Positions 15,354 through 39,239 of a stretch of DNA of 39,239 nucleotides are shown piece by piece. The translations under genes and the position numbers were made by a program. Each line of letters starts with the position of its first letter. Positions within the stretch are counted from its first letter, which is position 1. The DNA comes from a virus. A model generated the notes under the pieces. The model was not told the origin of the DNA. It saw only the letters and a program-made list of their open reading frames with translations, and did no database searches. Location of the stretch: IMG/VR virus record IMGVR_UViG_3300025300_000031, positions 1 through 39,239 of that record, one strand, 5' to 3'.

Positions 15354-15460
15354 TTATGGTTTCTCCCGTTGCTGGGATTTCATTCTTATCATTCTTAATT
15401 ACTGTCCTGAGTACCGAAGCCACTATGGTTTAAAGCGCGTCGTAATAAGATCCTGGTTCT

Positions 15461-15522
15461 ATGAACTGGTTCAGGAGAGTATTGGTGATGTCGTCAAGAT
15501 GGCCGATCCATTCAGCCACACC
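15461..15522 (-). repeat. Duplicated fragment of the portal gene
   Basis: 62 bases here match the portal coding sequence at 30924-30985 in the same orientation with three differences. Read on the minus strand it continues in frame directly after the TAG stop (15523-15525) of the gene at 15523-16839. It would encode GVAEWIGHLDDITNTLLNQF, then IEPGSYYDAL and a TAA stop at about 15431. A separate 29-residue frame could start at the GTG inside it. It is a recombination scar, a decaying extension or a readthrough tail; which one cannot be decided by reading. Confidence 0.85.
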
Positions 15523-25685: not shown

Positions 25686-26038
25686 GCCACTCCCTTGGAA
25701 TCATCCAGCGTCACATTTCCTTGCCGGATCGCGTCCGCACCCAGTCCAGATTCCACCGTTGCGTGATGCGATACAAGCAAGACCCCGTTCAGCGGGGGTG
25801 TTTGGCCGAGCCAGAAATAGTAGCGATCATACGTTCCGCTACCAAGTCCAGAGTTGTTCGACCCAGCACGGGGCACCTCGACCATCTTGTACGGGATCGG
25901 AGTTGAGTCTACCGATTTTCCGAAGCAGACGGTTCCGGTTCCGGGCGGGTAAAAGCACGTCCACTCGGCTGATACAATCGTTGGCAATACCAGCCATGCG
26001 GCCAGGAGAGCCAACGCCAGGAACAATTTTCGCTTCAT
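25646..26038 (-). CDS. Small exported protein, upstream of Wzy-like B
   Basis: 130 residues from ATG 26038 after AAGGAGAGAGCC; the frame reaching back to 26095 is rejected. MKRKLFLALALLAAWLVLPT followed by IVSAEW is a Sec signal with cleavage after VSA. The mature region (FYPPGTGTVCFGKSVDS, YDRYYFWLGQTPPLNGV, HHATVESGLG) is beta-rich with several cysteines (two early, two near the C-terminus, ACITAQGC) that could form disulphides in the periplasm. It begins 11 bases after the capsid stop and overlaps the start of Wzy-like B, the same pairing (exported protein plus Wzy-like) seen at 8820-10657. Confidence 0.65.
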   Translation of the reverse strand: MKRKLFLALALLAAWLVLPTIVSAEWTCFYPPGTGTVCFGKSVDSTPIPYKMVEVPRAGSNNSGLGSGTYDRYYFWLGQTPPLNGVLLVSHHATVESGLGADAIRQGNVTLDDSKGVACITAQGCPNDIP

Positions 26039-26048
26039 GGCTCTCTCC

Positions 26049-26993: not shown

Positions 26994-27024
26994 GCTAATC
27001 TCCTTCCTGGTTTATAACGAGAAA

Positions 27025-27062
27025 AAGGGGCCACCCAGGTACTCGGCCCCGAGTGGCCCCTT
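27025..27062 (-). terminator. Terminator-like hairpin just before the capsid gene
   Basis: On the minus strand a ten-base stem (AAGGGGCCAC / GTGGCCCCTT) with an 18-base loop is followed by TTTC, the form of a Rho-independent terminator. It lies between the decoration and capsid genes, in the middle of the late operon. An attenuating terminator or an RNA end that protects the capsid transcript are both possible. The loop carries an inner CGGCCCCG, so alternative folding is possible. Confidence 0.65.
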
Positions 27063-27117
27063 ATCCCGATGTTCTTGCCAGGGAGCGACCTTGGCAAGTC
27101 AGATTGTTTCCCGACTA

Positions 27118-27834
27118 TCAGTCAATCGGACTGAAGTAATGATTCGAGAAAACGATGTTCGCAAAGCTGTTTGTTGCGCCATCGAGTTCAACACTCTGGC
27201 ATCGAGCCGTCCCACCAGTTCCCACCGCAATCGCAGAGTTAATCTGGTCAAGGGTGGACGTAAGCTGGACAGCCGCAGTCCGGCCAGGACACATCGGAGT
27301 GAAATGGTAAGTCTCCGTTGTCCCGATGTCCTGGGAAAACGGAACCGTAACCACGATGCTGGTAGCCGAGTTGAACGTGACGATTACTCTCGACTCGTCC
27401 TTGTTGCCAGCCAGCCAAGCGGTCCCATTCACCATCGTGGCAGTCCCAACATCCGCATCGGTAATGGTCAGTCCATTGGTGTCTGCGGAGGTCGAGATGA
27501 GATCCTGCAACGCGGTATTCGCCGTTGCACCACCACTCAGAAGCCCACGGTAGATGGCGTGGGGATCGCAATTCACATCCGCAAGCCCTTCCGCGTCACC
27601 CTGTGTGGTTGAATAGGTAAGCGATCCGATGTTTCTTCCAACACCGACACCGCCACCAACCGCCATGACCGTTCCCATGCAATCAACAAATCCAGTCGCG
27701 GTAGCGGCTTCGAGTTGACCCGTCCCAGCGGTAGTCTCACTATTGACCACGCGCCCAGCCGTCAAGGTTTCACCCGCTTTGAAGGTAGCGACCAAAGGGG
27801 CCGTACCACCACTTAAAGCACCTGAATACTCCAT
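27118..27834 (-). CDS. Decoration/head-stabilising protein
   Basis: 238 residues from ATG 27834 after GGAGATAAGG. The protein is beta-rich, with small residues and few charges (FKAGETLTAGRVVNSETTAG; GVGRNIGSLTYSTTQGDAEG; GTAWLAGNKDESRVIVTFNS). Its opening reads like the small decoration domain (LTAGRVV...GFVDCMGTV) that binds capsids in phages such as lambda gpD-like or L-type systems. It is directly upstream of the capsid gene, the classic position. The exact family is inferred. Confidence 0.6.
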   Translation of the reverse strand: MEYSGALSGGTAPLVATFKAGETLTAGRVVNSETTAGTGQLEAATATGFVDCMGTVMAVGGGVGVGRNIGSLTYSTTQGDAEGLADVNCDPHAIYRGLLSGGATANTALQDLISTSADTNGLTITDADVGTATMVNGTAWLAGNKDESRVIVTFNSATSIVVTVPFSQDIGTTETYHFTPMCPGRTAAVQLTSTLDQINSAIAVGTGGTARCQSVELDGATNSFANIVFSNHYFSPID

Positions 27835-27836
27835 CC

Positions 27837-28253
27837 TTATCTCCTTCGCCGAACAGGGATATCCCCCGAGGTGAGCAAGCCTGTTGCTGGCCTTGCCCGG
27901 TTCTCTTTCATTTGAGGCTTTTTCAACCCGAACCAGGGCGCATGGACTTTCCGAAACTTCTCTTCGGGGTAATACTGATGACAGATACTGAAATCAGCAT
28001 TACAAGCCGTGCATCTGGTGTAGGCTGTTCTTGGTTTTCCGGTTACGTCGGTCACAAGCCCATACGCATTTCCTCGCGCCTTGAGCCGTTTCCGATTGCA
28101 AAGCTCGCAGAGATAGACGGGCATTCGGAGGTCTATTCTATCGTCCACCCTGGTTCCAGCCATCTTTCCACGCCCAACCAGCGGCATCAGCCTGAAGATC
28201 ATTTCCACCAGTTTCCGGCTGATATGCGTGGGTGGCTTTACCGGAATAGCCAT
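27837..28253 (-). CDS. Zinc-ribbon protein of the head gene cluster
   Basis: 138 residues from ATG 28253, one base after the upstream stop (TGA A ATG). A zinc ribbon is visible: YLCELCNRKRLKARG ... YTRCTACNADFSICHQYYP, that is CxxC then CxxC with a further Cys four residues on. The ends are basic (MKENRARP, VRRRR), as in nucleic-acid-binding proteins. It sits between the other zinc protein and the decoration gene. It could bind DNA or RNA during packaging; no family is named. Confidence 0.6.
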   Translation of the reverse strand: MAIPVKPPTHISRKLVEMIFRLMPLVGRGKMAGTRVDDRIDLRMPVYLCELCNRKRLKARGNAYGLVTDVTGKPRTAYTRCTACNADFSICHQYYPEEKFRKVHAPWFGLKKPQMKENRARPATGLLTSGDIPVRRRR

Positions 28254-28254
28254 T

Positions 28255-28524
28255 TCAGCGTCTCCGCGATCCATCAATGAAGTTATTCGTTCCGCAGTGT
28301 GGGCAGTTCGATGAAGACTGAACCGTCGCCCTTGCAACGGAAGTAACCCCAAGGTTGTCGGCAGGAACAGTCACCGGATCTTTCGCCGTTCCATCCGTAT
28401 TTCCGGTGTCCGTACTCGACCCCCCCACGGATTGGACGCGGAGGTCAATTCCCGAGAACCCACAAACCGAACACTTTATTCGGTAAGGCTCATCGCGTTC
28501 GGCATTCGGGCCGCGAGACCTCAT
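28255..28524 (-). CDS. Small zinc-ribbon protein
   Basis: 89 residues, starting in an ATGA overlap with the scaffold stop. Two CxxC pairs are present (IKCSVCGFSG near the N-terminus and NCPHCGTNNF near the C-terminus), separated by a Gly/Ser/Thr-rich linker (VGGSSTDTGNTDGTAKD). It is followed by a very basic end (GSRRR). The pairing of two different zinc proteins here is notable. A single zinc ion held by both pairs is likely. Function unknown. Confidence 0.6.
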   Translation of the reverse strand: MRSRGPNAERDEPYRIKCSVCGFSGIDLRVQSVGGSSTDTGNTDGTAKDPVTVPADNLGVTSVARATVQSSSNCPHCGTNNFIDGSRRR

Positions 28525-29405
28525 CGGCCTACCATAGCCTCGGGATTTTTAAACATCCTCTCCATAGTCGCCGGAGCCGCCGCACCGGCAAACCTTCGGA
28601 GATCTTCCTGGCTATCGGGGTCGTATCCGAGGGTTTTCATCATATCTCGGTCTACACCCCCCTTGAGAACCAAGTCCGGCACGTCCGGTTCCTTGGACCC
28701 ACCAACACGATCCACTCCATCCAGATGACGGGAAACCCGCTGTCTGCGCTGAGATTCGTTTTGCCTACCGCGAACCTCTGCTTCCTTGGCTCCGAACACG
28801 GAATCCAGGTGCTTCTTGACAATAGCCGCACCCCTTGGATTCTTGCTCAAGTCCTCACCGTAATCCTGCGACCACTGGCCCATGAAACGAACTGTTTCCT
28901 CGTTCTGAGATGTGCCAGCAGTTGCATAATCTGGGTATTCGGACTGGAGTGATGTATTGGCCCGTTCCTGTATGGCATAGGCTTGTCGTGCATAAGCGTC
29001 AACCTTGTGCCGCTGGCGGTCCTTGATGTCGGACAGATGCTCCAGATAATCCACTTCCGCGAGTTCGCCCGCCTCGAACATGGCCCTTACGTCGGCAATC
29101 TCCGCTTCGGGTGTTCGCTCTCGTGGTTCCTGCTGGGGAGCCTGGTTTCTTTCGACTTGTTCCAGGCGCGCCCTGAGTTCTGAATTCTCCTGTCGTTGCC
29201 GGTCAGCATACCGGATGGTCTCATCGATCTCGGTCACTTGGTCTGGCCGAAACCGCCCGCCAATGAGAACTTCTTCCTCTGTTTCCTGAGAGGTCGTCTC
29301 CTCTGGAGGGCTCTCAGGTAGTTGGGAAGGCGTGTCCTCGACGCCTTGTGAACCCTCCGGTTCTCCCGTTTCGGGGGCTTCGGGTTCAGTCACATCATCA
29401 GCCAT
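28521..29405 (-). CDS. Scaffold-like protein
   Basis: 294 residues from ATG 29405 after GGGGAGAATTGAAAG. The N-terminal ~45 residues are acidic and Pro/Gln/Glu/Thr-rich (PEAPETGEPEGSQG), then a coiled-coil helix (YADRQRQENSELRARLEQVER) and a charged region with an LSDIKDRQRHK helix. The C-terminal part is basic (RGRQNESQRRQRVSRH). This long acidic, helical design and its position between portal and capsid match internal scaffolding proteins, which shape the shell and leave. No protease motif was found. Confidence 0.7.
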   Translation of the reverse strand: MADDVTEPEAPETGEPEGSQGVEDTPSQLPESPPEETTSQETEEEVLIGGRFRPDQVTEIDETIRYADRQRQENSELRARLEQVERNQAPQQEPRERTPEAEIADVRAMFEAGELAEVDYLEHLSDIKDRQRHKVDAYARQAYAIQERANTSLQSEYPDYATAGTSQNEETVRFMGQWSQDYGEDLSKNPRGAAIVKKHLDSVFGAKEAEVRGRQNESQRRQRVSRHLDGVDRVGGSKEPDVPDLVLKGGVDRDMMKTLGYDPDSQEDLRRFAGAAAPATMERMFKNPEAMVGR

Positions 29406-29688
29406 CTTTCAATTCTCCCCTTGATCCTTGTTTTCCAATCTCAATTCCCTTTTCCAACCACTGAAAGATTTTCTTCTTTCCGAAAAACATTTCCCCTGCA
29501 TAGAATTCCCGCGTTCCCTTTGAAACCTCCGCTTTCATCACTTGCCGTTCCACGTATTCAATTTCTCTATTCAGGTGGAACTTCAAAATCTCCCATCCCG
29601 GTGTCCTCTTCATATTCCACAGGTGGCGGGCCTGTATCCCCTGCTCGTCGTCCCGGAACTGGGGCGGGCCCTCCATTGGCAGTTCCAT
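29398..29688 (-). CDS. Small protein overlapping the portal C-terminus
   Basis: 96 residues starting at ATG 29688 with a very strong ribosome site, GGGAGGAAATGAATG, located inside the portal gene; the overlap is 122 bases, out of frame. The last ~70 residues read TPGWEILKFHLNREIEYVER ... FYAGEMFFGKKKIFQWLEKG, a pattern of small helical proteins that often follow phage portals. If the ATG at 29613 is used instead, the overlap shrinks to 47 bases, but its ribosome site is weak. A small head protein is likely; its function is not known. Confidence 0.6.
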   Translation of the reverse strand: MELPMEGPPQFRDDEQGIQARHLWNMKRTPGWEILKFHLNREIEYVERQVMKAEVSKGTREFYAGEMFFGKKKIFQWLEKGIEIGKQGSRGELKDG

Positions 29689-32050
29689 TCATTTCCTCCC
29701 GACCCGCCTGGTTTAGGGCGTTGAAAGATGCCACATCCACGGCATCCGTATCAACAACAGCTTTTTTGATCTGTTGGGACTTGAGCTGAATATCCGCAAC
29801 GCCCGCCTGTAGATCCATTCTTATCCTTGCTATCCTCTCCTGTGCGCGGGCGATGATGTCCTGAACATTGGCCTTGCTCACTTCGATCTCGGCCTGTCCC
29901 TTCGCCTGCTCCAACTGTGCCTCGGCCTTCATCAGTTGAGCCTGGAGTTCCTGCATCTGGCTCGCTGACTGGGCTTGCTGTTCCAGCAGTTGAATTACCT
30001 TATCCGGCAGAATCTCGTCTGCGTCTTTTCTATTGAAATCATGGAGCATTGACCGAATATATGTGACCACTCCGGGTGGATAGACCTGTGCAAGCACCGG
30101 AAGAAGGCTCTGGGAAAGAAGCATTGACTGTTGCATTCTCAGTTGCTTGTTCCCGGACACCGGGTCGCCAAGGAACCGGAAATCAAACTGGCCCCTGATC
30201 TCCTCGCGGGTGAATTCCCTGAATGGATTTAGCGGATGTTGCTGTCCCGATAGGTGGGGCGGAATACCAAGGCCCATTTTGGCTTGCGGGGCAAGCGGAG
30301 GTCCGCCGCCTCCCGGCTCTTGTTGTGTAGCGGCCATCATCTGCTCTTCGGGACTCATGCCCATCTGCGCCTGACCGTTCATGCCCTGGCCTTGCTGAAG
30401 AGCCATCATCATTTGCTGTTCTTGCGGGTTCATTCCCGGCTGGGGTTGCCCACCAGGGCCTTGGCCCGGTTGCGGTGGCCCACCAGGGCCTTGGCCCGGT
30501 TGAATCTGTTGCGCGAGTTTGGGATTGACCTTGATCTCGAATCCGTCCGGCATGAATGCCTGGTAAAGCTGAAACATCATGGTGATGATTTCACTGGCGG
30601 CGGACTGGAACCGCCTGTTCTTGATCTCAAAACCCATCGCACCTTCGCCGAGCGTTCCCTGGAATTCGGCGGCGGATGCCCTTGAGCTTGGATTCAGCTT
30701 TCCAAGAAAAGCGTCAGACACCCCGGTAACAGTCTCGGTCTTTCTCTCGATGAACTGTATAAGCGTACTGAACACGGGGCCATAATCTGGAAGTGTCGGG
30801 AAGGTAATTCTTGCACCTTCGGGAACCGGGATGAGCTTTCCAAGTTCGAGTGTGATCGGGCCTTCTTCAAGAGAATCCGACTCGTAAGCCCCGGTCATCG
30901 CATTGATGAGCGTCGCCCTGTCGATGAACTGGTTCAGAAGGGTATTGGTGATGTCGTCCAGATGGCCGATCCATTCAGCCACACCTTTTCCATAGGGTGA
31001 CTGCGGGCGAGGGGTATATCTGCCAATGACGATTGGGCGTTTCCCGTGCGGATGCACCTCATCAAGATAGGCGGCCTGGAGAAGCGTTTCCGTCTCGACG
31101 TGAACGGTGAAAACCACCTCTTCGAGCAATCCGTCCTTGTCAATGTCATAAGCCCCGTGCCACTTGTAGGCTCTTCGCTTGTTGCGGCCCGGAGTGGAGA
31201 TGACACCCTCGCTTGAATCCTGTTCCTCTTTCGTTTCGGTCGGAGACGAGCTATCATCCCGCTTCTCGAATTGCTTGACACTCTCGAAATCCTTGCGGGT
31301 CATGACATTGTATGCGCCGGTCTTGTACCGTCTGGCGATGGCATCGAAGGGCAACCAGACCTGAAGAATGACCCAGTCAGCCTCTCCCGCCTGAACCCCC
31401 GTTGCGTCCGAGGGAAGGATGACATTTTCCGTGTCAATCATGTCAACCCATGCGCCCTCAAAGATAACCTCTTCCTGCTTTTCAATGAATTCATTTCCAT
31501 CCAGGTCTGTAATGACGCTCGGGATGTTTCGAACCTGGCGTTTCCAGTAAACATGCGCCGCGTAATCTCCCCTTGGGGGAATTGCGGCGGCGAACTCATC
31601 GAGTTTTTCGTAGAGATTCAAGCGGTCATCGGTAACAAGCCATTCAACAAACTGGCGGGCGGCAGGAATTCTCGAAATGTCATCAGATCCAACCGCCGTC
31701 ACGTCCATGATCTGGGAGACACCGAAGATTGAAGCCATGTAACGGGCGGCGGTGGCAAACGAAGCAACGGCAACGGCAGGGAGCTTTATGTTGGATGCGC
31801 CCTCCCAGGGCCAGGTCTTGGACTCGGTTTCCATCTCCAGACGCTTGATCGCGTCACGGCGTTTCGATAACCAGTCGGACCTGGCTTCCATGCCAGCCTT
31901 GGCATCAGCAATGACCATGCGGGCAATCTTCTCCCGCTCGGTCTTGCTTAACCGGATTTCTATCTCTGGCCGCTCCTCATCCGACCGACCTGGTACGGGA
32001 GCGTCGAGATCGATGGCTACAGATGCTGATTCTTCAATATCATCAAGCAA
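29567..32050 (-). CDS. Portal protein
   Basis: 827 residues from a TTG start with AGGGG upstream. The order of features fits a large podovirus portal: an N-terminal stretch with DAKAGMEARSDWLSKRRDAIKR, a stem region (WPWEGASNIKLPAVAVASFATAARYM), the core VAEWIGHLDDITNTLLNQFID, the long helices (GAMGFEIKNRRFQSAASEIIT), and a C-terminal coiled coil with many Gln/Glu/Lys (QEQ-type heptads, KAEAQLEQAKGQAEIEVSKAN). The C-terminal third has an unusual Gly/Pro/Gln/Met-rich insertion. Portals form the dodecamer through which DNA is packaged. The terminase genes are one block upstream. Confidence 0.88.
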   Translation of the reverse strand: MLDDIEESASVAIDLDAPVPGRSDEERPEIEIRLSKTEREKIARMVIADAKAGMEARSDWLSKRRDAIKRLEMETESKTWPWEGASNIKLPAVAVASFATAARYMASIFGVSQIMDVTAVGSDDISRIPAARQFVEWLVTDDRLNLYEKLDEFAAAIPPRGDYAAHVYWKRQVRNIPSVITDLDGNEFIEKQEEVIFEGAWVDMIDTENVILPSDATGVQAGEADWVILQVWLPFDAIARRYKTGAYNVMTRKDFESVKQFEKRDDSSSPTETKEEQDSSEGVISTPGRNKRRAYKWHGAYDIDKDGLLEEVVFTVHVETETLLQAAYLDEVHPHGKRPIVIGRYTPRPQSPYGKGVAEWIGHLDDITNTLLNQFIDRATLINAMTGAYESDSLEEGPITLELGKLIPVPEGARITFPTLPDYGPVFSTLIQFIERKTETVTGVSDAFLGKLNPSSRASAAEFQGTLGEGAMGFEIKNRRFQSAASEIITMMFQLYQAFMPDGFEIKVNPKLAQQIQPGQGPGGPPQPGQGPGGQPQPGMNPQEQQMMMALQQGQGMNGQAQMGMSPEEQMMAATQQEPGGGGPPLAPQAKMGLGIPPHLSGQQHPLNPFREFTREEIRGQFDFRFLGDPVSGNKQLRMQQSMLLSQSLLPVLAQVYPPGVVTYIRSMLHDFNRKDADEILPDKVIQLLEQQAQSASQMQELQAQLMKAEAQLEQAKGQAEIEVSKANVQDIIARAQERIARIRMDLQAGVADIQLKSQQIKKAVVDTDAVDVASFNALNQAGREEMNGTANGGPAPVPGRRAGDTGPPPVEYEEDTGMGDFEVPPE
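30448..30502 (-). repeat. 30-base tandem repeat in the portal gene
   Basis: The sequence GCCCACCAGGGCCTTGGCCC and the following GGTTG occur twice at a 30-base period, encoding two 10-residue units (QPGQGPGGPP and QPGQGPGGQP). The repeats lie in a Gln/Met/Gly/Pro-rich insertion of the portal, a type of sequence prone to slippage or recombination. Length variation between related phages would be expected here. Confidence 0.8.
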
Positions 32051-32059
32051 TTATGGCCC

Positions 32060-32413
32060 CTAAGCGACACCTTCCTTCAGTCTTTTTCTTACATCTCCGA
32101 GATCAAGGTCCAGGAGATCGCAGCAATCTTCAAATTTCAATCGGGACGTCTTCTTGTCTGCTGGTTTTCCGAATATCCATGCCGTGGCCTCGGCCTTCCA
32201 CAGTTTCAGTCCTTCCAGTCGCTCAGAGACGTGGCATCGGCTCGGGTCAATCTGGTAGTCCCTGACGGCCTGAAGAACCACCGCCGAGAGAAGGTTTCTG
32301 CAAGCATCGTCACTGGGCTCTGTGGCCCTGAACTTCTTCAGTTCCTTGTCTATTCTTCCTGGTCTTTTGGTCTTTTTTGAATTATCACGGCTTCGAAGCC
32401 TTGGGCTCATCAC
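32060..32413 (-). CDS. Unknown helical basic protein upstream of the portal
   Basis: 117 residues. The first ~30 residues are very basic (RLRSRDNSKKTKRPGRIDKE), and the C-terminal ~60 contain KAEATAWIF, then RLKFEDCCDLLDLDLGDVRKRL. The last part (F-x-x-C-x-x-L-x-L-D-x-x-x-VR) is a motif I recognise from many phage proteins next to packaging genes. A DNA-binding helix-turn-helix is plausible, but it is not called firmly. It could be the small terminase subunit, which otherwise is not recognised in this window. Confidence 0.55.
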   Translation of the reverse strand: MMSPRLRSRDNSKKTKRPGRIDKELKKFRATEPSDDACRNLLSAVVLQAVRDYQIDPSRCHVSERLEGLKLWKAEATAWIFGKPADKKTSRLKFEDCCDLLDLDLGDVRKRLKEGVA

Positions 32414-32449
32414 TCACCTCCGATTGTGATTTCAGCGGATGGGCATGGA

Positions 32450-32701
32450 TTATGTTCTCGATGCCCTCTTGGAGTCCCGTCCAGCTTTAAGGGAAATCTT
32501 CCCGCCATCGCTACCCGATGATGGTTGCACGGAGTCAACAGAACCTTGCGCCGCCCCGCTTGAGGCAATCTGCGGCATATTGATTCCGCTTTTGGTGGAA
32601 GCACTAGATCCAAAACTCATAGTTCCAGGCAGAACGTGGCCCTTCTGATTGGAGGGTCCACGGGTGTCTGGCTTCACATAGTTATGGTCACCTTTCGGCA
32701 T
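32450..32701 (-). CDS. Small basic, low-complexity protein
   Basis: 83 residues from ATG 32701, preceded by TAAGGAGACAG. The long frame reaching 32923 is rejected. The protein begins MPKGDHNYVKPDTRGPSNQKG and continues Ser/Gly-rich, ending SLKAGRDSKRASRT. The composition suggests a disordered, DNA- or particle-associated protein. It lies between two other small genes at the head of the late operon, so it could be a transcription or packaging accessory. No family is recognised. Confidence 0.55.
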   Translation of the reverse strand: MPKGDHNYVKPDTRGPSNQKGHVLPGTMSFGSSASTKSGINMPQIASSGAAQGSVDSVQPSSGSDGGKISLKAGRDSKRASRT

Positions 32702-32711
32702 TTCTGTCTCC

Positions 32712-32954
32712 TTACAGGATTTTCGCTCCGGTTCGGGCCTCGACAGACTTGATCGTACCCGCGCCCTTCCCGGCCATGATTGCCTTCGCCTCGGCATCCG
32801 AGATGGAGCCATCACCGGGAATTGCCCGGTTGCAAGCATCAACAAATTTCTGCATTGCCGCCGGATTGGGTATCTTGGACGATACCGGCTTTGCGGCGGC
32901 AATCTTCTTCTGATCTTTTTCAATAGCCTTTTTCTTCTTGTCCAGAATTGACAT
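32712..32954 (-). CDS. Small helical protein, first gene of the late operon
   Basis: 80 residues from ATG 32954 after GGAGACAAG. The N-terminus is a lysine-rich helix (LDKKKKAIEKDQKKIAAAKP), and the rest (NPAAMQKFVDACNRAIPGDG, AEAKAIMAGKGAG) is helical with small residues. The gene is the first after the candidate promoter at 33001-33030, so it probably marks the start of the structural transcript. No domain is recognised. Confidence 0.6.
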   Translation of the reverse strand: MSILDKKKKAIEKDQKKIAAAKPVSSKIPNPAAMQKFVDACNRAIPGDGSISDAEAKAIMAGKGAGTIKSVEARTGAKIL

Positions 32955-33000
32955 TCTTGTCTCCAGAAAAGGAAAGCCTAAATTTCATCTGCCCATTTCG

Positions 33001-33030
33001 GATATACATCCTTTCAAAGCAACGTGTCAA
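33001..33030 (-). promoter_or_regulatory. Candidate sigma-70-type promoter of the late operon
   Basis: On the minus strand a perfect TTGACA (33025-33030) is followed after 18 bases by TATATC (33001-33006), which matches the -10 consensus in 4 of 6 positions. The first gene starts at 32954, giving a short leader with a GGAGACAAG ribosome site. The region upstream holds inverted repeats that could block read-through from the terminase transcript or bind a regulator. Confidence 0.5.
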
Positions 33031-33117
33031 CAAGTTTTTTTGATGAATCGGGTTCATTTGTCAAAGGAACAAAATAGAACGGGTTTTGCGGGAATTCTGT
33101 TCTATCCCATAACTCCT

Positions 33118-33176
33118 TTGTTTTCAAGTATATCCTCATAAGACAAAATGAATCATGAGGATATACTTGAAAACAA
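33118..33176. repeat. Perfect 22-base inverted repeat with 15-base loop
   Basis: The arms 33118-33139 (TTGTTTTCAAGTATATCCTC plus AT) and 33155-33176 are exact reverse complements. There is no T run, so it is not a standard terminator. It lies upstream of the late promoter at 33001-33030. It could form a cruciform in DNA, a strong RNA hairpin, or a dimer-binding site. It is one of four strong inverted repeats in this 648-base non-coding region. Confidence 0.85.
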
Positions 33177-33217
33177 ACCACGCACCAAAGAAACCTGGTT
33201 TGTCTGGTGCGTGGTTT
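33175..33217 (-). terminator. 13-base hairpin, probable end of the terminase transcript
   Basis: Arms AAACCACGCACCA (33175-33187) and TGGTGCGTGGTTT (33205-33217) pair exactly. Read on the minus strand the stem is followed by GTTTTC, enough for a weak Rho-independent terminator of the upstream genes. It shares two bases with the 22-base repeat, so the two hairpins are back to back. The plus strand reads CATCC afterwards, so termination is one-directional. Confidence 0.55.
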
Positions 33218-33602
33218 CATCCGGTCTGTCCGGTTAATATCCCAGACAGCTCAGGTGTGAACTGGTGCGTGCGATCCCGGGGGGATAGACCCCCCCCGGC
33301 CATTACTGTGTACGAATGGGCTCGGACAGCATCAAATGGGAAGTTTGTTCCCATATAGGGGGATGGTACGTATTCGCGGGGGTATACTTGATTGCTGTTT
33401 ACAGGGTCTGTTTTTGCACGGGGAGTCCGGCTGGCTGGGGGGTACTCTGAAGTGTTACAGCGTAACAATCGTTTACTGGCAAGGGTTTTCGGGGATCTTC
33501 AACCGTAACATGACCCCCCTCTGTTACGGTTTGAAATTCGCTGAAACCCTTGCCAGTATCGGGTTGTGACGTTGTGACGTTTTGAATGGGGGGGGTAGGG
33601 GT
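33218..33602. promoter_or_regulatory. Non-coding region with nested inverted repeats and TGTTAC half-sites, possible origin or control region
   Basis: No convincing gene was found. Features: a CCGGGGGG/CCCCCCGG hairpin at 33277-33299; the palindrome TGTTAC-AGC-GTAACA with the T..A ends at 33453-33467; a large nested stem whose outer arms are TACTGGCAAGGGTTT (33474-33488) and its reverse complement (33544-33558), with an inner arm TTCAACCGTAACA (33498-33510) against 33522-33535; and a tandem TTGTGACG at 33564-33579. TGTTAC/GTAACA occurs four times between 33453 and 33527. Spaced half-sites plus strong hairpins are typical of replication origins or of multi-site operators. Confidence 0.55.
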
Positions 33603-33944
33603 TTAATGGGGATTTGCCTCAAGCTCTTCGAGTACTTGCTGCCTCTCAACCCATCTTTTCCACGGCCTGCCGTCAGAATCACCACTCAGGCAAACGAAAT
33701 TCCTGGACAGGGCGACTTCCTCGACAATACCGTCGTGCAAACTCATGTCATGTCCCAGGACAAATAGAACACGCATTCCGGCCCGTGGGCGAACCGGCCC
33801 GCTCTTAATCCGGGCTTGCGCCTGTTTCAGCTCCTTTTTCTGCTCATCGGAAAGGGGAATGGACTTGAGCTTTGCGGGACCGGGCCCTATGGATTCTTCA
33901 TCCTCCAGATCTTCTTCCAGGACAAAATCTTCTTCGTTCGTCAT
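33603..33944 (-). CDS. Small acidic protein downstream of terminase
   Basis: 113 residues after GGGGAGAATTGG. The N-terminus is very acidic (NEEDFVLEEDLEDEESIGPG), a basic middle follows (KKELKQAQARIKSGPVRPR), and the last ~55 residues resemble a small SH3/KOW-like beta barrel (GMRVLFVLGHDMSLHDGIVEEVA ... WKRWVERQQVL). It is the last gene before the long non-coding region and would be at the end of the terminase transcript. Function unknown. Confidence 0.55.
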   Translation of the reverse strand: MTNEEDFVLEEDLEDEESIGPGPAKLKSIPLSDEQKKELKQAQARIKSGPVRPRAGMRVLFVLGHDMSLHDGIVEEVALSRNFVCLSGDSDGRPWKRWVERQQVLEELEANPH

Positions 33945-33977
33945 GCCAATTCTCCCCGGCTGGTATGGAAATAACCC

Positions 33978-35585
33978 TCAGTATCCCGTGCTTTGAGCAA
34001 TTCCACGGCGAATATCACTGGCTTTGGAATCCCGAATACTGTCCTGGAATCTCCTTGTTGGCTCCACGTAGGCACGGCCCTGCCGCGCAATGCGTTCCTC
34101 GATGTAGCGCAGGCAGTCAGGATGGTCCCGATTCACCTCCTTCAGCTTGTCTGTCCTCGATTTCTCATAAATCGAGTGCCTGGAACTGTCATCCCACTGG
34201 ACACGGCGCATCTGGTGAATCAAACCATACTTTTCACCCTGCCTGCCGACTTCAATTTTCCCGCAGGCTCCGCGAAAGAACATGATCGATGGGATTTCCC
34301 GCTTTTCGAACGTGTCGTACTCCGGTTTAAGGCCCTTCTTGACAATCCTTACCCCGATTCCCACCGATCCGGGGGATGAGTTGCTTAATTTGATGTTTCT
34401 GAGTCCGGCACGCTCAAGTTCCCGCTTCCAGGACGTCCTGTGTCCACTTACCACGGACGGCTCCTCGGCGGCTTTTCGGTCAATTACGGTCCAGAACGGG
34501 TCGTTTCCGCCATGCTCGGCCCTTTTTGCCTTGATAGCCTGGACCAGTTCCCTCGGACCCCCGTCCACCACAAGCTGATCGTAGTAATACCGCCGTCCCT
34601 CCCGATTAACAGCACAGAAAACAATGCACGACGGCCTCGATCCGTGCGGATCTATGGCCTCATAACGGGTCCATTCCCACGGAATGGGGAAATCCTCGAC
34701 CATATGAGCCTCGCCAATCTCGGGATACGCCACGCCAGCCAGATGAGAGAAGATTCCTTTTTCCCGCGCCAACCTTTCTTCAGGGGGAACCGTCTTCAAG
34801 AACGCCTCTATCTGGTCCCGGCGCAGATGACCCCCGGTGTCAGCGCAGTTTTCCCATATTTCCACCCGCCGGACGTGAATGTTCTTGTCCTCATCCTCCT
34901 GATCACACAGCTCGGAGTCCACCCACGGCTCAATCAGGGGTGTCATGGTGAAAAACGCAATCCCGTCACGTGCCATCAACCCACGCTTGGTCGCCGTCCA
35001 TAACTTGTGAGGGGGGGGCTCGTCAAAACCCGCAATATCAAAGGTTTTCCCCTCAAAAGCCATCGAATCCTGCTGGTATGAGTTGAAATATAGCGTGTTT
35101 CTAAGATTCGGGTTGCAAAGACTCGGAACAGAAGTGGGATCGAAGAACCTGAAGCTGAATCCGCGTATATGTCCGCCATTCTTTATCGGTTCCGCCATGC
35201 CCTCGGGAAGAAGCTCGTAAAACTTTCGTAAATACGTCTGTTCCAGCCAGTTATCGAAGTCCGGGCCGCTCTGAACGCCGATCAGCGGCGGTCCCCAACG
35301 CCCATCCTTCCCGTCCTTCCGGTTCTCAAGGGGCCACCAGTCAGGATATATCTGCATCATGTGGCAAAGCATCTCGAAGATGGCAAAAGTCGTCTTTCCA
35401 GACTGGTTACCACCCGGGATCACCCGTATGGACTGCGGATGGCCCCGGGAATGCTCCTCCTTCTGCCACGGCAGGGGATTATGGAACATCATCGGCTGAA
35501 TGCGCCGAGCCTCGCGCTCCCGAAGCTCCGCTACGCCCAGATCTCGGATTTCTTCACGACTCATGCCGTCAAGAAGACCAGGCAT
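33978..35585 (-). CDS. terL: Terminase large subunit
   Basis: 535 residues from ATG 35585, preceded by GGGGAGCAATAGG; a TTG at 35600 would add five residues. The ATPase signature is clear: Walker A-type GGNQSGKTTFAIF (~58-70) and Walker B FDIAGFDEPP (~182-191, Asp-Glu). The nuclease half has RYEAIDPHG as the first acidic position of the RNase H-like fold, followed by VIDRKAAEEPS and a C-terminal DSSRHSIYEKSRTD segment. It cuts and pumps phage DNA into the head through the portal. A small terminase was not recognised with confidence (see 32060-32413). Confidence 0.93.
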   Translation of the reverse strand: MPGLLDGMSREEIRDLGVAELREREARRIQPMMFHNPLPWQKEEHSRGHPQSIRVIPGGNQSGKTTFAIFEMLCHMMQIYPDWWPLENRKDGKDGRWGPPLIGVQSGPDFDNWLEQTYLRKFYELLPEGMAEPIKNGGHIRGFSFRFFDPTSVPSLCNPNLRNTLYFNSYQQDSMAFEGKTFDIAGFDEPPPHKLWTATKRGLMARDGIAFFTMTPLIEPWVDSELCDQEDEDKNIHVRRVEIWENCADTGGHLRRDQIEAFLKTVPPEERLAREKGIFSHLAGVAYPEIGEAHMVEDFPIPWEWTRYEAIDPHGSRPSCIVFCAVNREGRRYYYDQLVVDGGPRELVQAIKAKRAEHGGNDPFWTVIDRKAAEEPSVVSGHRTSWKRELERAGLRNIKLSNSSPGSVGIGVRIVKKGLKPEYDTFEKREIPSIMFFRGACGKIEVGRQGEKYGLIHQMRRVQWDDSSRHSIYEKSRTDKLKEVNRDHPDCLRYIEERIARQGRAYVEPTRRFQDSIRDSKASDIRRGIAQSTGY

Positions 35586-35609
35586 CCTATTGCTCCCCAA
35601 ATACAGGTA

Positions 35610-35891
35610 TCAAAAATCCCCGTACCTTCCTTTTGCCTCATTCGGCAACAATATCTTCCGCCCGGTATCCCTCTCCACCCGCCCAACCCTGAATCCAAGG
35701 GCAAAAGTATACCATAGAGCCTCGTCCGGTGTTAATTGCTCCTCCCCAACACGATCAAGGTATATCTCAATCGTCTTGGAAACAGGCTTGTAGGGAATCA
35801 TCATGTGTTCAAGACATAACTGGCGGGGATGTATGACTCCAATCTTCGCAGATTCGTCCTCAAGTATCTTTGCTAACTCAAGATCCGTCAT
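35610..35891 (-). CDS. Small helical protein of unknown function
   Basis: 93 residues, overlapping the previous stop by 14 bases. It is helical with several Glu/Leu runs (LELAKILEDESAKIG, PVSKTIEIYLDRVGEE, TPDEALWYTFALGFRVGR). No signal, membrane segment or cysteine pair is seen. It lies between the membrane protein and terminase. A packaging accessory is possible; no family is recognised. Confidence 0.55.
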   Translation of the reverse strand: MTDLELAKILEDESAKIGVIHPRQLCLEHMMIPYKPVSKTIEIYLDRVGEEQLTPDEALWYTFALGFRVGRVERDTGRKILLPNEAKGRYGDF

Positions 35892-36126
35892 TCTCCATCC
35901 TCATGAGGGCTATCTTCTGGCAGAAATCCGACTTCCGCGCTACCGGATGATGCTCGCACTCCCAGGCACTCAAAGAGGCCAGATACAACAAAAACACCGT
36001 CCCCGCAACCAATATCCCCACCCACCACCACCAGCGATATGCCAGAAACCACCATAGTTCGCGGAGGAAAACCAACCCCTCAGAGCCTTGGATTGTAGTT
36101 TTCGAGATAAATCTCTGTCCAGGCAC
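35878..36126 (-). CDS. Small single-span membrane protein
   Basis: 82 residues from GTG 36126 (AGGGG upstream); a TTG at 36129 is one codon earlier. A tryptophan-rich membrane segment (LWWFLAYRWWWWVGILVAGT, continuing into VFLLYLASL) is the dominant feature, then a soluble tail with two cysteines (WECEHHPVARKSDFCQ). It overlaps the citrate-synthase-like gene by 47 bases. It might anchor or partner its upstream neighbour. No family is recognised. Confidence 0.55.
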   Translation of the reverse strand: MPGQRFISKTTIQGSEGLVFLRELWWFLAYRWWWWVGILVAGTVFLLYLASLSAWECEHHPVARKSDFCQKIALMRMENDGS

Positions 36127-36625
36127 CAATTCGACCCCTGATCAACCAGTAAAGAGCCGCTTCCGCCGGAAATCCCAGGGCCAAACAAACAGAACCCGTG
36201 TAACAGGCCGCATTGGGAAAGACCTTCTTGCCGCTTTCGTGGAGTATGTCCGTGATTTCCCTTATCCTGTCCCAGATGTCCCGGTTCCTTACACATAGAA
36301 CACGGTCAATCCTCGAAAGCTCCGGGTCAGGTCTGCCTTTCACGAAACCAGAACCCCAACCAGGAACCAAACGCTTCCCCTTGATTCTGAGCCTCGCCTC
36401 TTCTGCGTAAGAAGACCCGGAAAGGAATCTCACTACCTGGCTCACAGGCCCGTGAACCCCCCCGATAGCAAGCATCCCAGCAGCAATGGATGAAATGTAG
36501 TCCTTCTCAGCCGTCGCGTACTGGGAAATGACAACCGAGCTTAGATTCTCCCTCCTCGCTAACCGATCGTGGACCAACATCAACTCGTCAACCAGAACCC
36601 CGCCTAGCTCCCGAAGAAGAACCAT
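36080..36625 (-). CDS. Citrate-synthase-like protein lacking catalytic residues
   Basis: 181 residues that follow the C-terminal part of citrate synthase in order: ELMLVHDRLARRENLSS (cf. the L-x-H-DHE-x-N-x-S helix), ISSIAAGMLAIGGVHGPVSQ (cf. 'AaigalkGplHGGAn', His58), GKRLVPGWGSGFVKGRPDPE (cf. 'ipGfGHrvyk.DPR'), and KKVFPNAACYTGSVCLALGF (cf. 'yPNVDFYSG...lGiP') with LIRGRIGAWTEIYLE (cf. 'laRt.GWiAhw.E'). The first catalytic His remains, but the GFGH His is Ser92 and the PNVD Asp is Ala140. The N-terminal ~200 residues of a normal enzyme are absent. It is therefore probably a pseudoenzyme of the fold, of unknown use in a phage. Confidence 0.75.
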   Translation of the reverse strand: MVLLRELGGVLVDELMLVHDRLARRENLSSVVISQYATAEKDYISSIAAGMLAIGGVHGPVSQVVRFLSGSSYAEEARLRIKGKRLVPGWGSGFVKGRPDPELSRIDRVLCVRNRDIWDRIREITDILHESGKKVFPNAACYTGSVCLALGFPAEAALYWLIRGRIGAWTEIYLENYNPRL

Positions 36626-36649
36626 ATGGTTAATTCTGCCTCACCGTAT

Positions 36650-36895
36650 CTAAAAGGGGATGTACGCCGCGATCCGTAACAACGTGATAAGGACCATTCC
36701 CGTGAGCAGAAAAATGGTCCAAGTAATGGCCCAAATGGCGATTTGGAGGGGTTTCATCCTCACACCTTCGCGTAACCCGGCACTCCAGGCCCCGCCACCC
36801 CGTTCCACCAGTAGAAATGCGCCCACCATACAGAGACAGGTTCCACGTGAAACCCTATAACACCCCAGGAACCGTTTGGCAAGACCAAGCATCAT
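36650..36895 (-). CDS. Small membrane protein with two hydrophobic segments
   Basis: 81 residues if ATG 36895 is used (AGGGG lies five bases upstream). Two hydrophobic stretches are visible (TCLCMVGAFLLV and IAIWAITWTIFLLTGMVLIT). A shorter version from ATG 36757 (35 residues, MKPLQIAIWAITW onward) with AAGG upstream would contain only the second. Which start is used is unclear. It is the first gene of the terminase block and starts the minus-strand transcript here. Confidence 0.45.
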   Translation of the reverse strand: MMLGLAKRFLGCYRVSRGTCLCMVGAFLLVERGGGAWSAGLREGVRMKPLQIAIWAITWTIFLLTGMVLITLLRIAAYIPF

Positions 36896-37078
36896 GGGGC
36901 CCCTAATCCTGTCCCGGGCAACATGTGACAACCGGCAAATGGATAAGGGGCCCCTTTGTGGGGACGGCACAGGGAGGGGGATGCAAAGCGCGAGGTCGCG
37001 CTTTGGGAAAATTTTGTCAAGGCTTTTTTTGGGGCCTCGCCGTCCTTATCATCGGGAAAAATGGGGCCCTTTTTTCAA
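36896..37078. other. Non-coding, GC-rich spacer with a perfect hairpin
   Basis: No gene is seen. It contains GGGGCCCC-type palindromes near 36896-36904 and 36944-36955, and a perfect nine-base hairpin, AAAGCGCGA / TCGCGCTTT with a GG turn, at 36985-37004. A TTGACA on the minus strand (37016-37021) has no matching -10 element. The spacer separates the terminase block from the iteron array and the cassette terminator, so it should hold the promoter of the terminase transcript, but none is convincing. Confidence 0.45.
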
Positions 37079-37140
37079 TGATAAGTTTGTCGGTTTGCGA
37101 TGATAGGTTTCAATGATAAGTTTCGAATGATAAGTTTCGG
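37079..37140. repeat. Second iteron-like array (ATGATAAGTTT / TCGGTTTGC)
   Basis: ATGATAAGTTT starts at 37078-37079 and recurs near 37113-37123 and 37127-37137, with a variant ATGATAGGTTT at 37100-37110 and TCGGTTTGC at 37090-37098. From 37091 on, the GTTT cores are 14, 13 and 14 bases apart. The TCGGTTTGC copy is identical to the array at 1-38. Two arrays with the same spacing and core, about 2.1 kb apart if the genome is circular, suggest one binding protein. Confidence 0.65.
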
Positions 37141-37149
37141 GGCGCGGAC

Positions 37150-37179
37150 AAAAAAAGAGCCCGGGATTTTCCCGGGCTC
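37150..37179 (-). terminator. Rho-independent terminator after the gene cassettes
   Basis: A ten-base stem (GAGCCCGGGA / TCCCGGGCTC) with a 3-base loop is followed, on the minus strand, by seven T residues. It ends the transcript that starts at the strong promoter near 39040 and covers the small gene, the Gp88-like gene and the cassettes. It also shields the iteron array behind it. Confidence 0.9.
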
Positions 37180-37184
37180 TTCGG

Positions 37185-37233
37185 GCGGCCCGGAGGGCCG
37201 ATATCTCGGCCCGCCGGGGCGCCCGGAGGCGCC
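37185..37233. repeat. Cassette repeat, copy A
   Basis: A 49-base element identical to copies B and C except for one base (G at 37213 instead of A). It can form several hairpins: GGCCC-GGA-GGGCC, GGGCCGA-TATC-TCGGCCC and GGCGCC-CGGA-GGCGCC, all in one unit. Here it lies between the stop of the first cassette gene (3 bases away) and the terminator, with no leader or gene on its other side. It may mark the end of the array. Confidence 0.85.
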
Positions 37234-37235
37234 CG

Positions 37236-37517
37236 TCACACAAATACCGATAACCCGAACAGCGGACGGGTATACACCAGGATTTCAGGATCTGATAAAA
37301 AATCAACATCCGGGTTCCGCGACGCCGCCTCTTCCGCGAGGTGCAGCAGATCCGGCATGTCCTGGATTGCATAATCCGCCGCTAGATCTCTATCCCCTGT
37401 ATCGTAGGATCGAGTCAGATCGTGTCCGCCCTCCGCCGCCAAGGCGTGCATCAAAGCCCGAAGTTGCGTCAATTGCGCCGCCGATACTTCTATCTCTGCT
37501 CCGTACATCCGTTCCAT
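37236..37517 (-). CDS. Cassette gene 1, unknown acidic protein
   Basis: 93 residues from ATG 37517, after AAGGGGG in the repeat leader; a longer frame reading into the repeat is rejected. The protein is acidic and helical (YGAEIEVSAAQLTQLRALMHAL, DRDLAADYAIQDMPDLLHLAE) and ends with a hydrophobic LFGLSVFV. Stop and start sit 3 bases from repeat A and 11 bases from the leader of copy B. No family is recognised. Being bounded by repeats suggests it can be gained or lost as a unit. Confidence 0.6.
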   Translation of the reverse strand: MERMYGAEIEVSAAQLTQLRALMHALAAEGGHDLTRSYDTGDRDLAADYAIQDMPDLLHLAEEAASRNPDVDFLSDPEILVYTRPLFGLSVFV

Positions 37518-37527
37518 TTTCCGACCC

Positions 37528-37603
37528 CCTTGATATTCCGCCTGGGTCATCCAAGCGGCCCGGAGGGCCGATATCTCGGCCCACCGGGGCGCCCGGAGGC
37601 GCC
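37528..37603. repeat. Cassette repeat, copy B with leader
   Basis: The 49-base core (37555-37603) matches copies A and C. It is joined to a 27-base leader (37528-37554), shared with copy C apart from two bases, that reads on the minus strand as GGAT(G/A)ACCCAGGCGGAATA followed by TCAAGG. The leader ends in the ribosome site of cassette gene 1. The whole unit works as a repeated 5' untranslated region, not only as a spacer. Confidence 0.88.
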
Positions 37604-37607
37604 TGGT

Positions 37608-37808
37608 CTATGTCCTGTGGACAACGACAGTCCTACCTGAGATTCGTTTCCAGCTGACTTCTTTGGCCTCGAGGGCGCATCCAGCAATAGGCCGCAGGAC
37701 GCACGCCCTTTTAATCGCCATTTCCGCCGATGGCGCGGTCACCCGCAACGTCTCAATCACTCTCTCGTTCATTTTGGCGACGATCAGAAACTGGGTTTTG
37801 CGGCCCAT
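37608..37808 (-). CDS. Cassette gene 2, small basic protein
   Basis: 66 residues from ATG 37808 after AAGGAG in the leader. The protein is short, basic and mixed alpha/beta (FLIVAKMNERVIETLRVTAPS, AEMAIKRACVLRPIAG). Its two cysteines are not paired. The stop is five bases from copy B. It is unrelated by eye to cassette gene 1, which is what one expects if different genes occupy similar repeat-bounded slots. Confidence 0.6.
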   Translation of the reverse strand: MGRKTQFLIVAKMNERVIETLRVTAPSAEMAIKRACVLRPIAGCALEAKEVSWKRISGRTVVVHRT

Positions 37809-37817
37809 TATCCGGCT

Positions 37818-37893
37818 CCTTGATATTCCGCCTGGGTTATCCAGGCGGCCCGGAGGGCCGATATCTCGGCCCACCGGGGCGCCCGGAGGCGCC
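37818..37893. repeat. Cassette repeat, copy C with leader
   Basis: Core at 37845-37893, identical to copy B; leader at 37818-37844 differs from B's by two bases. It separates cassette gene 2 from the Gp88-like gene, whose stop at 37923 is 30 bases away. On the minus strand it lies before the ribosome site of cassette gene 2. The strong GC hairpins should also affect transcript stability or translation. Confidence 0.88.
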
Positions 37894-37922: not shown

Positions 37923-38726
37923 CTACTTTCTTTTTTCTCTATCCCACTCCATGCCCTGACCGATCTTCCATGCCCTAATTGAATCCATTAAGGCTTGGTC
38001 CGCAAGGCCTGCGCCGGAACCGTGTGTTGCGAAACCGATCGTAATCTCCGCTCGCTTCAACCTGGATACGTCCAGGCAAAGCCGACATTTGACGCAAGGA
38101 ACGTGTTGTGTTTGAGCTGGGCACGGAACGATCGTGTGGCCGTCAAGCTGATAGGCGCGATCGGATTTAAACCGATCGACCACGATGGCCGTAGCGTATC
38201 CGCGTGATCGTGCCAACCTGATATCGGCGGTTGTCTCACATGATGCGATCACGTTAGCACCATACCAGTATTTTTCAAGTATTGTGCGCCAACCGTGGGC
38301 GAAGGCCCAAGCGGACACTACGGCCCCGTAGAGCCGCATGGCGCGCTTTTGATAGCGCACCATGGCGCGGCCTACCTTAGAAGCCGAGCGCCTATCCGGG
38401 CAATCACCAACTACGGCATGACGAAAATCCCGAACGGGATCTAATGCGTCAATTCTTTTCACGTACGCATTTATGATCCGTCGGATAGTTGCGGCCTTCC
38501 CGAAGATCGCAACCCAGGCCTTCGCAATCTTGTTGATCCTTCGGGTTGTAAATGCCGTATTTCCACTTTCGGCATAGCAACCCGAACCAAGGAACGGGCA
38601 ATCATTGGGGCACGTTTCCTGTGAGAGATAACTAGCATTGACTGATAGGCCTTCGGCCTTGCGGAGTTCTGGGTTCCCGACCAACTTTGCGTTTTGGCTT
38701 TTTTCCTTTATTGTGAATCCGTTCAT
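37923..38726 (-). CDS. Gp88-like phage protein with Cys-rich motif
   Basis: 267 residues. The N-terminal 60 contain KLVGNPELRKAEGLSVNASYLS then TCPNDCPFLGSGCYAESG, the signature of the 'Gene 88'/Gp88-like phage family (KLV...TCP..CP...GCYA). The middle is helical and basic (VGRAMVRYQKRAMRLYGAVVS), and the end has a second cysteine cluster (PCPAQTQHVPCVKCRLCLD) next to ETTADIRLARSRGYATAIVV. Cysteines could bind a metal or iron-sulphur cluster. The family is widespread in phages, and I know no firm function. It is the second gene behind the strong minus-strand promoter. Confidence 0.75.
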   Translation of the reverse strand: MNGFTIKEKSQNAKLVGNPELRKAEGLSVNASYLSQETCPNDCPFLGSGCYAESGNTAFTTRRINKIAKAWVAIFGKAATIRRIINAYVKRIDALDPVRDFRHAVVGDCPDRRSASKVGRAMVRYQKRAMRLYGAVVSAWAFAHGWRTILEKYWYGANVIASCETTADIRLARSRGYATAIVVDRFKSDRAYQLDGHTIVPCPAQTQHVPCVKCRLCLDVSRLKRAEITIGFATHGSGAGLADQALMDSIRAWKIGQGMEWDREKRK

Positions 38727-38743
38727 TTTCCCATTCCCCTAAT

Positions 38744-38767
38744 GGGCCCGGGACAATTCCCGGGCCC
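38744..38767. promoter_or_regulatory. Perfect hairpin between the first two minus-strand early genes
   Basis: GGGCCCGGGA (38744-38753) and TCCCGGGCCC (38758-38767) form a perfect ten-base stem with a CAAT loop and no T run. It lies 17 bases upstream of the Gp88-like start. The stem resembles the terminator at 37150-37179 (both have a CCCGGGA core). A processing or mRNA-stability element is likely. Confidence 0.7.
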
Positions 38768-38777
38768 GGATTGAATG

Positions 38778-38984
38778 CTATCGATCGGATCGCATGATCC
38801 GATCGTACATGGCCCGGACGTCTACCCAGGCGACGAACCCGTCGCCCATCGCATCCTTCAGAGCGGCCAAGATATCTTCCTGTGGGACGTCTTCCCAGTC
38901 CGCGTCAAGGCAAAGATCCGCCTTACGGGCACGATCCCTATTCCATGAGTAACTTTTTTTCTGGTACCGATCTTTGTCTCTCAT
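38778..38984 (-). CDS. Small acidic/basic unknown protein, first minus-strand early gene
   Basis: 68 residues from ATG 38984, with CGGAGAACGGG upstream. It has a basic N-terminus (MRDKDRYQKKSYSWNRDRARK) and an acidic, helical remainder (DLCLDADWEDVPQEDILAAL, then MGDGFVAWVDVRAMYDRIM). No family is recognised. Lying directly behind the strong promoter at 39040-39068, it is likely to be expressed early and well, and could be a host-takeover protein. Confidence 0.6.
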   Translation of the reverse strand: MRDKDRYQKKSYSWNRDRARKADLCLDADWEDVPQEDILAALKDAMGDGFVAWVDVRAMYDRIMRSDR

Positions 38985-39039
38985 TTTCCCGTTCTCCGTT
39001 TAGGTGTTACTCATTGATCCCTTGACCAACTTGATTACT

Positions 39040-39068
39040 ATTTTACAAAATAGATATCAGAGTGTCAA
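39040..39068 (-). promoter_or_regulatory. Strong sigma-70-type promoter
   Basis: On the minus strand TTGACA (39063-39068) and TAAAAT (39040-39045) are spaced by 17 bases, close to the ideal. A/T-rich sequence with two TGAAAAAAAA-type runs lies upstream (39087-39108), as in UP elements. It would drive the genes 38984 to 37236 and end at the terminator 37150-37179. This is the best promoter in the window. Confidence 0.9.
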
Positions 39069-39130
39069 GGGAAAAATGGGCTAAATTGAAAAAAAATGAA
39101 AAAAAATATAGACCGACAAATACAAGATTT

Positions 39131-39146
39131 TGGCACAGAGATTGCA
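39131..39146 (+). promoter_or_regulatory. Sigma-54-type (-24/-12) promoter
   Basis: TGGCAC then five bases then TTGCA at 39131-39146, with GG and GC separated by 10 bases, matches the sigma-54 consensus TGGCACG-N4-TTGCA/T except for one base. The start of transcription would be near 39157. It points toward the window end, that is toward the early operon at 132 if the genome is circular. Sigma-54 promoters need an activator and are rare in phages. Confidence 0.6.
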
Positions 39147-39167
39147 AGAAACATCTGGGGCCTGCTA

Positions 39168-39215
39168 ACTGTTAACAGTCAACTGTGATGTTTGGGGGGC
39201 GAAATTGTTAACAAT
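39168..39215. promoter_or_regulatory. Pair of GTTAAC palindromes, candidate operators
   Basis: Two perfect 12-base palindromes, ACTGTTAACAGT at 39168-39179 and ATTGTTAACAAT at 39204-39215, share the core TGTTAACA and are 36 bases apart from centre to centre. They lie 11-58 bases after the predicted sigma-54 start site, so a bound protein would block transcription. The XRE or HTH protein of the early operon is the natural candidate, but binding is not shown. Confidence 0.7.
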
Positions 39216-39239
39216 CGGCAATCGACTGTGGGCTGTTGA

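What the first reader, a model, noticed from the sequence alone, without database searches (positions are those of the whole stretch)
37185..37893. Single-gene cassettes bounded by three near-identical structured repeats
Copies A, B and C (49 bases, one difference) alternate with unrelated small genes (93 and 66 residues). B and C also share a 27-base leader that supplies the ribosome site, so the repeat acts as a portable 5' untranslated region. Several internal hairpins are formed. The array ends with a terminator. This looks like a repeat-mediated cassette array for exchanging small early genes, in concept like an integron, but without an integrase and built from homologous repeats.
Basis: partly seen in the sequence, partly recalled or inferred. 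Interest (0 to 1): 0.88.

Follow-up and report, generated by a model that had tools for sequence, protein, structure and literature searches.

The report
Hairpin-punctuated swappable phage gene operon
A small early-type operon of an uncultivated phage separates its genes with near-identical RNA-hairpin-plus-ribosome-site repeats, and most of the operon is replaced in an otherwise 99.9% identical sister phage, so the repeats probably act as RNA punctuation in a gene-swapping hotspot; a dedicated integron-like exchange machine is not shown.

Summary
The repeats are real. Three 49-nt copies (37185-37233, 37555-37603, 37845-37893; one difference) each follow a stop codon on the minus strand. B and C continue into a shared 27-nt leader (2 differences) carrying the ribosome site; A abuts an intrinsic terminator. 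They fold as 2-3 stacked GC hairpins, the strongest structures in the window.

A sister contig (L004) is 99.9% identical over 13.1 kb and shares the terminator and promoter. Between these its operon differs: a diverged GP88-family gene (43% identity), a different last small gene, and no 49-nt repeat. Its junctions carry another hairpin-plus-RBS repeat, present once in the window. So gene content here turns over and hairpin junctions recur, but no exchange through the A/B/C copies was observed.

Best reading: intercistronic RNA punctuation (3' hairpins fused to the next gene's leader) in a hypervariable operon; near-identity secondarily offers homology for shuffling. It resembles T4 PeSLs and mycobacteriophage SAS/ESAS repeats but is a member of neither. 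Around GP88 genes of other phages, 33 of 45 gene-sized indels fall at gene starts with ribosome sites (random positions: 10), an analogous pattern. The element was found nowhere else. New variant of a known kind; moderate interest.

The parts
39040..39068 (-). sigma-70-type promoter at the head of the operon (TTGACA-17-TAAAAT)
   Evidence: 11 of 12 consensus positions; same hexamers and spacing in L004
38778..38984 (-). first gene, 68 aa; C-terminal half shared with L004, N-terminal part diverged
38741..38769 (-). type-1 junction: hairpin GGGCCCGGGAATTGTCCCGGGCCC, followed by a GGGGAATGGGAAAATG leader; two further copies in L004 with one extra G-C pair
37923..38726 (-). 267-aa GP88/DUF7227-family gene
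   Evidence: Pfam PF23872 1.5e-21, PF17338 2.2e-6; 43% identical to the L004 counterpart
37845..37893 (-). repeat copy C (49 nt, two hairpins)
37818..37844 (-). 27-nt leader after C; completes the third hairpin and supplies AAGGAG
37608..37808 (-). 66-aa orphan gene
   Evidence: no homologue; gene frame scores best
37555..37603 (-). repeat copy B (49 nt)
37528..37554 (-). 27-nt leader after B (2 differences from C); ribosome site AAGGGGG
37236..37517 (-). 93-aa orphan gene
   Evidence: no homologue; gene frame scores best
37185..37233 (-). repeat copy A (49 nt, one difference), without leader
37154..37182 (-). intrinsic terminator; identity with L004 resumes here

Best explanation
The repeats are intercistronic RNA punctuation modules in one operon, probably expressed early. 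Each module joins the 3' hairpins of one gene (H1, H2) to a third hairpin and the ribosome site of the next gene (H3-RBS). Inferred function: they seal the 3' end of the upstream message segment (protection or processing by host RNases) and give each small gene an insulated, similar translation start; the last copy runs into the terminator. The operon is a hypervariable locus between a conserved promoter and terminator, where gene sets are replaced between near-identical phages. Near-identical modules would also serve as short homology for gain, loss or shuffling of single genes. Shown: repeats, position, predicted folds, and replacement in a sister phage. Inferred: the RNA function, and use of the repeats as crossover sites.
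For: All copies have one orientation and lie between a stop codon and the next RBS or the terminator. Folding z -5.3 to -6.0, and these are the strongest structures in the window. The differences among copies leave the fold intact: an internal-loop C/U, a G-U pair and a loop base. Type-1 hairpins in window and L004 differ in length by a matched base on both arms. One promoter-like site and one terminator on the operon's strand, none inside. L004 is 99.9% identical over 13.1 kb but differs in the operon. In the GP88 neighbourhoods of other phages, repeated RBS leaders precede several genes and 33 of 45 gene-sized indel junctions lie at starts, against 10.1 +/- 2.8 at random positions.
Against: No transcript data. 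Only one close relative, and it lacks the 49-nt element, so covariation across phages cannot be tested. The indel control does not correct for selection against broken genes, and overlaps of 10 nt or more at junctions are about as common at starts as elsewhere (read off the list). Identical modules also fit recent duplication without function.
Confidence: 0.6

Rival explanations
1. A dedicated repeat-mediated cassette array: phage annealing or recombination proteins cross over within the 49-77-nt repeats to add, delete and reorder single genes, integron-like in concept without an integrase.
For: B and C share 77 nt at 97%; gene-sized units; gene content turns over in a 99.9% identical relative; single-gene indels at leader repeats with overlaps up to 44 nt in other GP88 phages.
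Against: No exchange at A, B or C observed; L004 has no copy; the difference is one block between promoter and terminator with a diverged GP88 allele on each side. Gene-boundary breakpoints are also what selection would leave.
Confidence: 0.15
2. Ordinary operon replacement: homologous recombination in the conserved promoter and terminator flanks swapped in a diverged version of the operon; the repeats are passengers that came with it.
For: Identity breaks at the terminator edge (37185) and near 38981, with conserved promoter and terminator; both versions keep the order first gene-GP88-small gene(s)-terminator.
Against: Does not explain why each version carries its own near-identical hairpin+RBS module at its junctions, or the type-1 module shared by both.
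Confidence: 0.15
3. Small mobile or repeat-derived element (REP/BIME or MITE-like) that spread into intergenic sites.
For: Compact GC hairpin, three near-identical copies, absent at the terminator edge in L004.
Against: Not found in viral contigs, bacterial genomes or phages, and only short weak matches in plasmids; all copies in one orientation; no target duplication seen; carries the next gene's RBS.
Confidence: 0.05
4. DNA-binding sites (repressor, stoperator or partition) or an assembly chimera at repeats.
For: Palindromic cores; repeats of 49-77 nt can mislead short-read assembly, so the order of the two small genes is not beyond doubt.
Against: Position is always stop-to-RBS on one strand; different hairpins occupy the same kind of position in L004, which fits structure rather than a sequence-specific site. 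A chimera would not create the module sequence or the unique genes.
Confidence: 0.05

Closest known systems
PeSLs (promoter early stem-loops) of T4-type phages (Arbiol 2010; Comeau 2014, as cited in PMC4503421)
   Same: Repeated stem-loop regulatory motif between genes in regions of intense shuffling, credited with gene shuffling between close relatives
   Different: By the title of the 2014 paper PeSLs are promoter-terminator composites; here the junction has hairpins plus an RBS and no promoter. The two PeSL papers were not held and were not read
SAS/ESAS of Cluster K mycobacteriophages (PMC3203893)
   Same: Repeated sequences at starts of non-structural genes, carrying the Shine-Dalgarno; in ESAS an inverted repeat lies just upstream
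   Different: SAS is 13 bp and ESAS has 17-bp imperfect repeats that give little support for RNA pairing; here 77 nt with strong predicted RNA hairpins, also forming the upstream gene's 3' end
RNase III-processed intercistronic hairpins of T7 early mRNA (own knowledge)
   Same: Hairpins between early genes of one transcript
   Different: T7 sites, as I know them, are not near-identical modules carrying the RBS; processing is untested here
Integron gene cassettes (own knowledge)
   Same: Single promoterless genes separated by structured repeats behind one promoter
   Different: No integrase identified; attC and attI features not tested; no site-specific exchange shown

Membership tests
Integron | IntI tyrosine recombinase beside the array | tested here: inconclusive
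   No recombinase among the family hits for the array and neighbouring proteins scanned; not every ORF of the window was scanned and the record may be incomplete
Integron | exchange at structured repeats, one cassette at a time | tested here: inconclusive
   L004 shows one block replacement, no repeat-internal crossover
PeSL | early promoter inside each junction motif | tested here: not met
   The only minus-strand promoter-like site is at the operon head, none in the repeats; the scan covers sigma-70-type sites only
PeSL | stem-loop between small early genes in a region of gene turnover | tested here: met
   'early' itself is inferred
SAS/ESAS | 13-bp GGGATAGGAGCCC next to start codons | tested here: not met
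   Leader reads CAGGCGGAATATCAAGG
Intrinsic terminator | GC stem followed by a T run | tested here: not met
   Met only by 37154-37182, not by A, B or C
Known RNA family (Rfam 15) | match at gathering score | tested here: not met
   0 matches in the window
Mobile repeat (REP/MITE) | copies elsewhere, either orientation | tested here: not met
   No copy elsewhere in this record or in viral contigs, phages or genomes; plasmids gave only short weak matches

The most novel reading that the evidence does not exclude
A recombinase-free phage cassette array in which a 77-nt RNA-structured 3'-tail+5'-leader module is both the expression unit and the crossover site, letting a phage population exchange single early genes while keeping expression intact.
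Probability: 0.15. Interest if true: 0.7.

Novelty: new variant of a known kind. Interest (0 to 1): 0.45.

Why it matters
Small early genes are where phages keep many host-takeover and counter-defence functions (general knowledge; the genes here are of unknown function). A standard junction that supplies 3' end, insulation and ribosome site would let any gene dropped in be expressed at once, and would make these hotspots easy to find by their repeats. The sister pair gives two natural versions of the same locus in an almost identical background.

Tried and rejected
Exact core searches in viral contigs (26 nt: none; 17 nt: 4 chance matches without the rest of the element) and genome contigs (none); blastn to phages (none) and plasmids (two weak short matches in Streptomyces plasmids, taken as chance). 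GP88 and TerL as single queries: GP88 found no relative, TerL found two contigs; TerL in genome contigs none. Terminator and type-1 hairpin patterns found only the L004 contig. 93-aa protein: no relative; its structure prediction was poor (pLDDT 46.5) and was not searched further. Rfam: none. tRNA: none. Relatives by taxonomy cannot be drawn for a virus record. Regular hairpin modules are not general in other GP88 arrays, where hairpins before starts are sporadic.

Full report
Observation. The window is a 39,239-base virus record. All features of the finding lie on the minus strand. Three 49-nt copies sit at 37185-37233 (A), 37555-37603 (B) and 37845-37893 (C); B and C are identical and A differs at one base. 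After B and C follows a 27-nt leader with 2 differences; it ends in the start of the ribosome site, 9-10 nt before the ATG of the 93-aa and 66-aa genes. Shuffled sequence never gave an exact repeat longer than 14 nt. Copy A runs straight into an intrinsic terminator (37154-37182). The copies follow stop codons by 29 (C), 4 (B) and 2 nt (A).

Structure. The 77-nt module is predicted to fold as three stacked hairpins leaving the ribosome site open: GGCGCC-loop-GGCGCC; CCGG-u-GGGCCGA-GAUA-UCGGCCC-u-CCGG; and CCGCCUGG-loop-CCAGGCGG (z -5.3 and -6.0). A long rod made of H2 and parts of its neighbours is an alternative; in A, which lacks H3, the rod is the predicted form. The three copies are the strongest 50-nt structures on either strand. 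No T run follows the hairpins of A, B or C, so they are not intrinsic terminators.

Operon. One promoter-like site (39068-39040, TTGACA-17-TAAAAT) heads a run of four genes: 68 aa, a 267-aa GP88/DUF7227-family protein, 66 aa and 93 aa. The two last have no homologue in Pfam, PHROGs or phage records and no similarity to each other, but the gene frame has the best codon score of all six frames. The first junction carries a different hairpin (type 1, GGGCCCGGGAATTGTCCCGGGCCC) and leader. That the operon is expressed early is an inference from its host-like promoter and its place outside the structural genes.

The sister phage. L004 (IMGVR_UViG_3300025280_000182) matches window 23979-37111 at 99.9% over 13,134 bases, again at 37127-37185 (100%, the terminator) and at 38981-39239 (97%, the promoter region). 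Between 37185 and about 38981 it differs. It has a first gene of 63 aa whose C-terminal half matches, a GP88-family gene at 43% amino-acid identity, and one different 83-aa gene that joins the terminator directly and has no phage homologue. L004 has no copy of the 49-nt repeat. Its two internal junctions carry type-1 hairpins plus RBS leaders, and the stems are one pair longer than in the window through a matched change on both arms. So the locus turns over; each version uses near-identical hairpin+RBS modules; the module type can change.

What this says about exchange. Breakpoints fall at the terminator edge and in the first gene or its leader region, so the simplest account is replacement of most of the operon by a diverged version, perhaps in several steps. 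No crossover inside A, B or C is seen. As a wider test I collected 71 viral contigs with GP88 relatives. Many carry repeated 18-37-nt RBS leaders before several small genes. Among 45 non-redundant gene-sized indels between related loci, 33 junctions lie at RBS-start sites, against 10.1 +/- 2.8 for random nearby positions, with shared sequence at the junction of up to 44 nt. Two cautions: selection removes broken genes, which the control ignores, and long overlaps are about as common away from starts. These phages are only distantly related to the window, so this is an analogy.

Mechanism. I favour RNA punctuation: one orientation, stop-to-RBS placement, structure kept through the few differences, and different sequences of the same kind in the sister. 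Whether the modules stabilise, direct RNase processing or insulate translation is not testable here. Their near-identity makes them plausible homology for shuffling, which is secondary and unproven. A short-read assembly could also misorder segments at such repeats; reads would settle this.

Known relatives in concept. [quoted passage not shown] a junction promoter is absent here. SAS/ESAS of Cluster K mycobacteriophages are repeated start-associated sequences with a Shine-Dalgarno, whose inverted repeats give little support for RNA pairing (PMC3203893). The window's element is neither, and it was found nowhere else. Verdict: confirmed observation, partly supported interpretation, new variant of a known kind.

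Noticed in passing
36080-36625 (-): 181-aa protein downstream of the terminator matches the citrate synthase C-terminal domain (Pfam 3.1e-8; PDB citrate synthases about 1e-3), unusual for a phage; possibly a repurposed enzyme fragment.
   Followed up: partly
window 1-36 and 39140-39239; L004 5100-5800: Noncoding region dense in GTTAACAGT / CAAACCGAT repeats; the window's ends lie in it, so the contig probably broke there. May be an origin or iteron region.
   Followed up: no
33117-33217 and 33454-33578: Cluster of inverted repeats (23-nt perfect arms; 57-nt arms at 75%) downstream of the terminase large subunit gene.
   Followed up: no
L005:6-634 versus window 34056-34684: L005 is 99.9% identical downstream but its terminase segment is only 84% identical, a possible second recombination tract in this phage group.
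   Followed up: no
15458-15535 and 30921-30998: 78-nt direct repeat at 88% identity, one copy within the portal-like gene.
   Followed up: no
L012, L019, L022, L050, L066-L082: GP88-gene neighbourhoods of other phages with repeated RBS leaders (e.g. CCCGTAACCCGTAAAAGGATCAATCATGAA) and single-gene gain or loss at those leaders.
   Followed up: partly
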